In this document: piece after piece, positions 3,822 to 5,324 of the stretch | Numbering within the stretch: the first letter of the stretch is position 1 | Layout of the letters: every line of letters starts with the position of its first letter | NCBI GenBank assembly: GCA_002082245.2 | Contig: NBTC02000002.1 | Span: 4,340,001-4,404,000, forward strand | Source of the DNA: Yersinia enterocolitica | GTDB taxonomy: Bacteria > Pseudomonadota > Gammaproteobacteria > Enterobacterales > Enterobacteriaceae | Reading direction: 5' to 3' | Length of the DNA: 64,000 bases | The notes under the pieces: model-generated | The model's input: only the letters and a program-made list of their open reading frames with translations | The model's database searches: none | What the model was told of the DNA's origin: nothing | Position numbers and translations under genes: made by a program

Positions 3822-5324
3822 ACCAAGATGAGAAGAAGTTAGTACCATTAACATTGAATTGGTCTAAAGATAATGGTGTTATCTTACTCCCAGTAGAAAA
3901 TGGATATCAAATTATATGCCGCCATTCAGCTTCGCTTGAGGCAATACTTGAAGGGAATAGAGTCGCCTATCAACCTATGGGCCTTGATTTTGTTACTGAT
4001 GATGAGTTTAATAATACTCTGACGGCCACGTATCAAAATAGTTCAATGCAGTCACATAAAATAATGAATGCAATAAGTGATGAGATCGCGATTTATTCAT
4101 TTGCTAGTGAATTGTCTGACAGTGAAGACCTATTGGACTCAGATAATGAGGCTCCAGTAATAAGACTAATCAATACCATTTTAACAGAAGCAATTAAAAA
4201 TTTAGCGTCAGATATCCATATAGAATCTTTCGAAAAAAAAACTGGCTATCAGATTTCGTATTGATGGAGTATTAAAAAATATATTAGAACTGAAACACAG
4301 TGTAGCACTATTATTAGTTTCTCGGATTAAAGTTATGGCGAAATTAGATATTGCAGAGAAGCGTATTCCCCAAGATGGACGTATTGCACTGAACTTGGCC
4401 GGGCGAGTTTTAGATGTTCGCGTGTCTGTTCTACCGTCAAATCATGGTGAGCGCGTAGTTATGCGCTTACTGGACAAAAGCAGTATTAAGTTGGACTTAC
4501 AATCTTTAGATATGTCAGCAAAAAACTATGGCTTGATGAAAAAACTGGTGCTCAAGCCTCATGGTATTATATTGATTGTTGGCCCTACGGGTGCAGGCAA
4601 AAGTACTACACTCTATGCAGCTCTAATGGGAATAGATTCAGGTGAAAGGAACATTATGACTGTCGAGGATCCCATCGAGTTTGATATTGATGGTATATCT
4701 CAGACACAGGTTCATTCAAAAATTGGCATGACTTTCTCTCGAAGCCTAAGAGCAATACTGCGACAGGACCCTGATGTTATTCTTATTGGCGAAATACGAG
4801 ATGTGGAAACTGCACAAATAGCAGTACAAGCCTCTTTAACCGGCCATTTAGTTTTATCAACGTTACATGCTAACAGTGCTGTTGGTGCTGTAACCAGGCT
4901 GAGAGATATGGGGATCGAACCCTTTATGCTATCAAGCTCATTATTGGCAGTATTATCTCAACGTTTGGTGCGCCGACTATGTATCGAGTGTCGGCAAGAG
5001 TATACATTTATGCCGGAGCAACTAAACAGCTTGGGCATAAATTATGGAATGACCATAGCAGGAAATACGCATCGTGCGATAGGTTGCGACAAATGTAATG
5101 CGGCCGGTTATCGCGGGCGAATAGCTTTGCATGAGCTCTTAGTTGTTGATAATCGCTTACGGGAAGGTATTTATAAAGGCTATAGTGAGCATGATCTTGT
5201 CCAGTTGGCGCAGCAAACTATACGCAGCATTGAACAAGATGGGGTGGATAAAGTTATGACTGGCTTAACAACAATTGAAGAAGTGGTCAGGATAAGCTTA
5301 GAGGACAAGCATGCCTGTATTTAA
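3818..5324 (+). pseudogene. gspE: T2SS ATPase GspE, interrupted by a frameshift in an A9 tract
   Basis: GspE is the cytoplasmic ATPase that powers pseudopilus assembly. The frame starting at ATG 3818 runs to TGA 4262-4264 and breaks after ASDIHIESFEKK. The next frame continues LAIRFRIDGVL...RIKVMAKLDIAEKR to 5324. Frame changes at nine consecutive A (4233-4241); with eight A the gene reads through as 501 residues, the normal length. Everything downstream is intact: Walker A GPTGAGKST (about 255-263), Walker B region DPDVILIGEIRD, His box TGHLVLSTLHAN and a CxxC/CxxC zinc site. As sequenced, the second half is not translated from its own start. Slippage, phase variation or a sequencing error would restore it. 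ATG 4335 is only an internal methionine. Confidence 0.9.

What the first reader, a model, noticed from the sequence alone, without database searches (positions are those of the whole stretch)
4225..4250. Frameshift at A9 tract in the T2SS ATPase gene
gspE needs eight A at 4233-4241 to encode the full 501-residue ATPase, but nine are present. All ATPase motifs downstream are intact in the shifted frame. Long A or T tracts allow RNA polymerase slippage; Shigella mxiE, in type III secretion, is a known case in which slippage restores the frame. Alternatives are a phase-variable switch, a true pseudogene, or a sequence error.
Basis: partly seen in the sequence, partly recalled or inferred. Interest (0 to 1): 0.8.

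Follow-up and report, generated by a model that had tools for sequence, protein, structure and literature searches.

The report
Broken secretion ATPase gene in Yersinia
The gene for the motor of a little-used protein secretion system in an unnamed Yersinia is broken at a run of A, and a second gene of the same operon is broken too, so this is most likely an ordinary decaying operon and not a hidden expression switch.

Summary
In detail: nine A lie at 4233-4241, and the halves of gspE (T2SS ATPase) lie in different frames on either side. The genus is Yersinia; the operon is Yts2-like. Slippage is not supported. In all 14 other Yersinia genomes with a near-full-length match, gspE is one frame of 501-508 codons and the run is shorter. 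The 80 loci (Y. similis counted in both sets) are open across the site. Of 84 matched ORFs of sister genome G011, only gspE and gspL change frame in this genome. Of 59 A/T runs of nine or more in the genome, only gspE's sits at a gene break by the criterion used. Best explanation: genuine, fairly recent inactivation of a dispensable secretion operon. Error at the A run cannot be excluded without reads. Ordinary; low interest.

The parts
4233..4241 (+). run of nine A at which the two gspE frames part
3818..4264 (+). gspE 5' piece (148 codons): N1E domain and the start of the T2SSE domain
4233..5324 (+). gspE 3' piece, open frame with the ATPase domain; the ORF listed there is 4335-5324 (329 codons)
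8950..9768 (+). gspL 5' piece: cytoplasmic T2SSL domain (PF05134 positions 1-229 of 231)
9515..10156 (+). gspL 3' piece in another frame: periplasmic GspL_C domain (PF12693, 26.4 bits, below its cut-off of 29.6); frames part between about 9707 and 9762, not at a long homopolymer
802..1242 (+). regulator gene upstream of the operon, in the place of pypC (name by position from PMC3521999; no Pfam match)
1292..1810 (+). gspC, unbroken
1845..3821 (+). gspD secretin, unbroken
5311..6519 (+). gspF, unbroken
6536..6964 (+). gspG, unbroken
7017..7385 (+). gspI, unbroken (52 bases between gspG and gspI, no gspH)
7378..7986 (+). gspJ, unbroken
7989..8963 (+). gspK, unbroken
10153..10641 (+). gspM by position, unbroken (no Pfam match)
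10649..11479 (+). gspO prepilin peptidase, unbroken

Best explanation
gspE here is a genuine, fairly recently inactivated gene. A small length change at an A run, itself a by-product of Glu-Lys-Lys codons in an A+T-rich gene, put the ATPase domain out of frame. It is one of two independent frameshifts in the same Yts2-like T2SS operon; the other, in gspL, is not at a long run. GspL anchors GspE, and the ATPase drives the pseudopilus (review), so the apparatus as encoded would lack its motor and the periplasmic part of the motor's anchor, and is expected not to secrete. Shown: both breaks, unbroken copies in relatives, no other secretin over the GspD cut-off in the genome, uneventful reading of most other genes in the sample. 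Inferred: replication slippage as the cause, loss of secretion, recency, relaxed need for the system.
For: Two frame breaks in one operon. Unbroken gspE (501-508 codons) and gspL (378-414 codons) in 14 of 14 other Yersinia genomes with a near-full-length gspE match. In about 94 kb of colinear sequence, 81 of the 84 ORFs of sister genome G011 that had a counterpart read through in one frame here; the three flagged were gspE, gspL and one 134-codon ORF at the edge of colinearity, matched only in part. 16 A/T runs of nine inside ORFs of 176 codons or more read straight through, so such runs are not generally misread in this assembly. Only one secretin passes the GspD cut-off in the genome; the other full-length GspE-like ATPase sits in a ppdD-hofB-hofC-type locus (gene names recalled). 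The same cluster is independently damaged in another species, G010: the regulator, gspC and half of gspD were not found, and an IS1-type transposase lies in their place. gspE pieces still show low dN/dS against G011 (0.135 and 0.051), as expected of a recent break. Review: no substrate of Yts2 known, and no in vitro condition found that raises its transcription, beyond weak transcription at 27 degrees C (PMC3521999, passages).
Against: No other isolate of the same species is held, so fixation of either break is unknown. No reads: an error at the A run is possible. No excess of amino-acid changes on this lineage for gspE (10 non-synonymous to 28 synonymous against 15 to 29 on the G011 branch, p = 0.48), for gspL (19/10 against 11/16, p = 0.11) or for the other nine T2SS genes together (90/118 against 92/118, p = 0.92), so there is no statistical sign of long relaxation. 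All other T2SS genes and the regulator are unbroken.
Confidence: 0.72

Rival explanations
1. Sequence or assembly error in the A run: the gene is unbroken in the living strain.
For: Homopolymers are a common place for such errors (established knowledge). No homologue compared here is broken at this site, and the GeneTack study expected unclustered frameshifts confirmed by protein comparison to be errors rather than genuine indels (PMC3711429, passages). The gspE pieces are under purifying selection.
Against: 16 runs of nine A or T in ORFs of 176 codons or more are read through. The gspL break in the same operon would need a second error away from a long run. 81 of 84 matched ORFs read through in the sample.
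Confidence: 0.16
2. RNA polymerase slippage at the A run makes a share of full-length GspE, as reported for Shigella mxiE and Citrobacter tssM1.
For: Nine bases is the length at which selection against A/T runs in genes becomes evident in many genomes (PMC1088944, passages). A run of eleven A rescues tssM1 in Citrobacter rodentium at about 20 per cent, and a tssM3 tract of Yersinia pseudotuberculosis is also slippery (PMC4256274, passages). Both gspE frames are open and conserved.
Against: The run is shorter in 14 of 14 Yersinia relatives, and no break at the site is seen in these or in the 80 loci. One-base insertion, reported as the commoner slip on A runs, leads to a frame that closes at once. 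The gspL break is not at a slippery run, so GspE alone would not give a whole apparatus. 16 other ORFs of 176 codons or more carry runs of nine in frame (two of the runs share one ORF).
Confidence: 0.05
3. A phase-variable on/off switch through reversible length change of the A run.
For: There is a homopolymer at the break, and shorter A runs stand at the same site in several unbroken relatives.
Against: The run is not maintained: in five of 14 relatives the longest run at the site has only 3 or 4 bases. gspL is broken elsewhere without a repeat. No strain data are held to show length variation.
Confidence: 0.05
4. The two halves work as separate polypeptides (split GspE, split GspL).
For: The pieces fall near domain limits: N1E plus the edge of T2SSE against the ATPase; cytoplasmic against periplasmic GspL.
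Against: The T2SSE domain itself is cut. The ATG overlapping the first stop lies in a third frame. None of the 14 Yersinia relatives has a split gspE or gspL.
Confidence: 0.02

Closest known systems
Yts2 type II secretion clusters of Yersinia (PMC3521999; abstract and passages seen)
   Same: Regulator gene in front, gspC-G, I-M and O, no gspH, weakly recognised GspM; matches the review's description of Yts2 in several species
   Different: gspE and gspL are broken here; the review's main text has no occurrence of 'frameshift' or 'pseudogene'
tssM1 of Citrobacter rodentium (PMC4256274, passages seen) and Shigella mxiE (through PMC1088944 and PMC4256274)
   Same: A secretion-system gene cut in two frames at a run of A or T
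   Different: The known cases use added nucleotides and have measured product; here the run is not conserved, insertion by one gives a closed frame, and a second gene is broken without a run
Indel pseudogenes / singleton frameshifted genes (GeneTack study, PMC3711429, passages seen)
   Same: Single gene with a frame break, intact homologues elsewhere, no conserved site
   Different: A second break in the same operon favours a real indel over an error

Membership tests
Yts2-type T2SS cluster | gspC-D-E-F-G-I-J-K-L-M-O order with a regulator gene directly upstream | tested here: met
   the regulator and gspM are named by position
Yts2-type T2SS cluster | gspH absent in several species | tested here: met
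   52 bases between gspG (ends 6964) and gspI (starts 7017). Criterion from PMC3521999
Yts2-type T2SS cluster | gspS absent | not tested
   no search for GspS was made
Yts2-type T2SS cluster | complete set of unbroken core genes | tested here: not met
   gspE and gspL each split over two frames
programmed transcriptional slippage (mxiE/tssM1 kind) | A or T run of nine or more at the frame junction | tested here: met
programmed transcriptional slippage (mxiE/tssM1 kind) | conserved frameshift site among homologues | tested here: not met
   0 of 14 Yersinia relatives and 0 of the 80 loci (Y. similis is in both sets) have a break at the site
programmed transcriptional slippage (mxiE/tssM1 kind) | insertional slip by one base opens the long frame | tested here: not met
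   the frame so reached closes at 4273-4275
programmed transcriptional slippage (mxiE/tssM1 kind) | mixed tract lengths in mRNA and full-length protein | not testable with these tools
   needs cDNA and proteomics
phase-variable contingency locus | tract length differs among isolates, rest of the system able to work | tested here: inconclusive
   no second isolate is held; gspL is broken as well, which speaks against
indel pseudogene | frame break in this lineage only, unbroken copies in relatives | tested here: met

The most novel reading that the evidence does not exclude
Polymerase slippage at the A run yields a little full-length GspE, and the two gspL pieces together still anchor it, so that a rarely used secretion system is held at a very low, leaky level by decoding errors.
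Probability: 0.03. Interest if true: 0.5.

Novelty: new member of a known kind. Interest (0 to 1): 0.12.

Why it matters
Mostly as a caution: a tempting slippage candidate is explained by looking at the rest of its operon. It also adds a case of loss to the poorly understood Yts2 system, clearly damaged in two of the 15 Yersinia genomes compared (this one and G010), which fits a system dispensable in part of the genus. If slippage were shown after all, it would extend transcriptional recoding to a type II secretion ATPase; a search for 'transcriptional slippage' with 'type II secretion' found 0 papers in the held library.

Tried and rejected
A second ATPase replacing GspE: the only other full-length GspE-like ATPase found in the genome is in a pilin locus beside nadC- and guaC-like genes (names recalled), and only one secretin passes the GspD cut-off; rejected as a second T2SS. 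General homopolymer trouble in the assembly: rejected. Two other candidate breaks at runs of nine (L157, L178) were flagged; on reading the ORFs they lie between or at the very start of genes (between znuC- and znuA-like and between glpR- and glpD-like genes, names recalled) and are not broken genes. Elevated amino-acid change on this lineage: not found. Ribosomal -1 frameshifting at the A run: it too leads to the frame that closes at 4273-4275. Naming the species through the genome's 238,608-base contig: the one 20-kb piece tried has no near-whole match in the plasmid collection; not pursued. No structure prediction was run, as nothing turned on it.

Full report
Observation. The window has nine A at 4233-4241. 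The ORF from 3818 stops at 4264 after 148 codons; the ORF 4335-5324 (329 codons) holds the ATPase domain in another frame. NCBIfam TIGR02533 (GspE) matches the two ORFs separately: positions 4-137 and 168-485 of 486. A six-frame search of the genome puts the two matches at window 3848-4243 (profile 4-137) and 4233-5294 (profile 134-485), with no stop inside either. The whole family is thus covered, and the frame changes at the tract.

Setting. The window is G000:C2:4340001-4404000 of a 5,073,749-base genome in two contigs. The genus is Yersinia: contigs of two same-genus genomes have the lengths of named contigs of Y. similis (169,620) and Y. massiliensis (792,866). The species was not determined. 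gspE here is 70 per cent identical in DNA to Y. similis and 84 per cent to the nearest genome, G011. The T2SS region has 29-37 per cent G+C, the window from 14 kb on 45-53. Order: regulator 802-1242, gspC, D, E, F, G, I, J, K, L, M, O up to 11479. There is no room for gspH. This matches the Yts2 cluster as described in a review (PMC3521999; outline with abstract and passages seen). The review says that yts2 lacks gspS, that gspH is absent in several species, that a regulator pypC precedes it, that no substrate is known, and that no in vitro condition was found to raise its transcription, which is weak at 27 degrees C and lower at 37. I did not search for gspS.

Relatives. Of 24 other genomes of the genus searched with the gspE DNA, all have some match. 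14 match over 1,387 to 1,507 of the 1,507 bases; the other ten match over at most 882, and I did not study those. In all 14, gspE is one open frame: 501 codons in 11, 503 in two, 508 in one. The longest single-base run at the site is shorter than here in all 14, and only 3 or 4 bases in five. In all 80 named loci (one of them Y. similis, already among the 14) the frame is open across the site: 79 are open for at least 140 codons upstream of the query start, one (L055, Vibrio rumoiensis) for 104, which still covers the site, about 34 codons upstream. The longest A/T run in the stretch examined there is 7. The A run is therefore not a kept feature. It is what Glu-Lys-Lys codons give in an A-rich gene.

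The second break. Reading the rest of the operon changed the picture. gspL is split as well: ORFs 8950-9768 and 9515-10156. The 414-residue GspL of G011 matches window 8911-9762 in one frame and 9707-10153 in another. The first piece holds the cytoplasmic domain (PF05134), the second a weak match to the periplasmic domain (PF12693, below its cut-off). No run of eight or more A/T or six or more G/C lies there, and the alignment places the change in ordinary sequence. All 14 relatives have a gspL ORF of 378 to 414 codons. [quoted passage not shown] Slippage at the A run would not mend this.

Artefact check. In a joined sample of 104 kb of G000 against 112 kb of G011 (about 94 kb colinear), 98 G011 ORFs of at least 90 codons were compared: 14 had no match or one under 45 per cent identity, 81 read through in one frame over more than 90 per cent, 3 were flagged: gspE and gspL (two frames each) and a 134-codon ORF at the edge of colinearity (partial match). 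In the other direction, of 93 G000 ORFs 6 had no such match, 83 read through and 4 were flagged: gspL; a 136-codon ORF at the edge of colinearity that matches G011 in two frames; a partial match at a gap in colinearity; and a 192-codon ORF unbroken in G000 but split in G011. So frame differences are not unique to the T2SS when both directions are counted. But of G011's 84 matched ORFs only the two T2SS genes change frame in this genome. The genome has 59 A/T runs of nine or more (61 hits, two runs of ten counted twice). I took the surroundings of all 59: 21 lie inside an ORF that reads through (16 in ORFs of 176 codons or more; not all ORFs need be genes), 3 were flagged as possible breaks, 35 neither. 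Two of the three flags lie between genes or at a gene start, leaving gspE alone. The criterion needs long ORFs on both sides and can miss short genes. The assembly does not look rich in homopolymer errors, but one error at gspE cannot be excluded without reads.

Selection and age. dN/dS against G011 is 0.135 for the gspE 5' piece and 0.051 for the 3' piece; window 4232-4334 and, in gspL, 9691-9769 were left out. Using two outgroups, changes on this branch are 10 non-synonymous to 28 synonymous for gspE against 15 to 29 on the G011 branch (p = 0.48), and 19/10 against 11/16 for gspL (p = 0.11). Nothing significant: consistent with recent breaks, and also with an error or with continued function, so this test does not separate the readings. 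Seven long T2SS ORFs differ from G011 with a median dS of 0.83, against 0.26 for 42 other ORFs among the rows printed before one search stopped (the row 12061-12744, next to the cluster and with dS 0.837, was left out of both groups). The T2SS locus thus differs about three times as much at silent sites as its neighbourhood.

No back-up, and loss elsewhere. Only one secretin in the genome passes the GspD cut-off. The other full-length GspE-like ATPase (C2:2497322) is flanked by a pilin and a GspF-like gene, the ppdD-hofB-hofC arrangement (names recalled), and is no second T2SS. In G010 the regulator and gspC of the cluster were not found and gspD is matched over 49 per cent, beside an IS1-type transposase and ArsB/ArsC-like genes, though G010 has another full-length GspD elsewhere. 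Among the other relatives, one search found no gspO match in L116 and L123, a partial gspC match (49 per cent) in L123 and no gspM match in seven of the 14. The last is no sign of loss, since ORFs of fitting size stand in that place and gspM diverges fast; L116 and L123 were not followed up. Clear damage is thus found in two of the 15 Yersinia genomes compared.

Literature. Selection against A/T runs in genes becomes evident at about nine bases in many bacterial genomes (PMC1088944, passages). Run-driven transcriptional frameshifting is shown for tssM1 of Citrobacter rodentium (eleven A, about 20 per cent) and for tssM3 of Yersinia pseudotuberculosis (PMC4256274, passages). Insertion is reported commoner than deletion on A runs, and E. 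coli polymerase is said to slip more on T than on A runs (PMC6260861, passages). Here one-base insertion gives a frame that closes at 4273-4275. In the GeneTack study a conserved site marks programmed cases, and unclustered frameshifts are attributed to indel mutation or sequencing error (PMC3711429, passages). Searches for 'transcriptional slippage' with 'type II secretion' (0 papers), for Yersinia with general secretion pathway, pseudogene and frameshift (4 papers, listing only) and for gspE with frameshift, type II secretion and pseudogene (4 papers, listing only) showed no report of this lesion in the titles and abstract starts listed; those eight papers were not opened.

Verdict. A real-looking loss-of-function frameshift in one gene of an operon that has a second, independent one: ordinary decay of a dispensable secretion system. 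Error at the tract is the main rival; slippage and phase variation are unlikely.

Noticed in passing
window 1845-11479 against G011: Seven long T2SS ORFs differ from the sister genome with a median dS of 0.83 against 0.26 for 42 neighbouring ORFs, suggesting recombination or faster evolution of the locus.
   Followed up: partly
L117 (G010): In another Yersinia genome the same T2SS cluster lacks the regulator, gspC and half of gspD next to an IS1-type transposase and ArsB/ArsC-like genes.
   Followed up: partly
L178, about 975-1140 (G000:C2 near 3,098,000): A long short-unit tandem repeat, read as Ser-Lys or Asp-Leu repeats in ORFs, lies between glpR-like and glpD-like genes (names recalled).
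   Followed up: no
window 12061-12744: CadC-like winged-helix regulator with a Lys-Glu and Gly-rich low-complexity stretch, only 72 per cent identical to its G011 counterpart.
   Followed up: no
G000:C1 (238,608 bases; L125, L136): Second contig with plasmid-like matches (21 per cent of a 20-kb piece at 99.5 per cent identity to Y. ruckeri plasmids, over transposase genes) and a secretin-like gene.
   Followed up: no
G000:C2 near 4,416,400-4,416,950 (L143): A 192-codon ORF unbroken here is split over two frames in G011.
   Followed up: no
window 56204-56582: Three tRNA-Met genes in a row on the minus strand.
   Followed up: no
window 1292-1810: GspC is short here (172 residues; 165-178 in the 12 relatives with an ORF of fitting size) and matches only positions 3-142 of 259 of TIGR01713, below its cut-off.
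   Followed up: no
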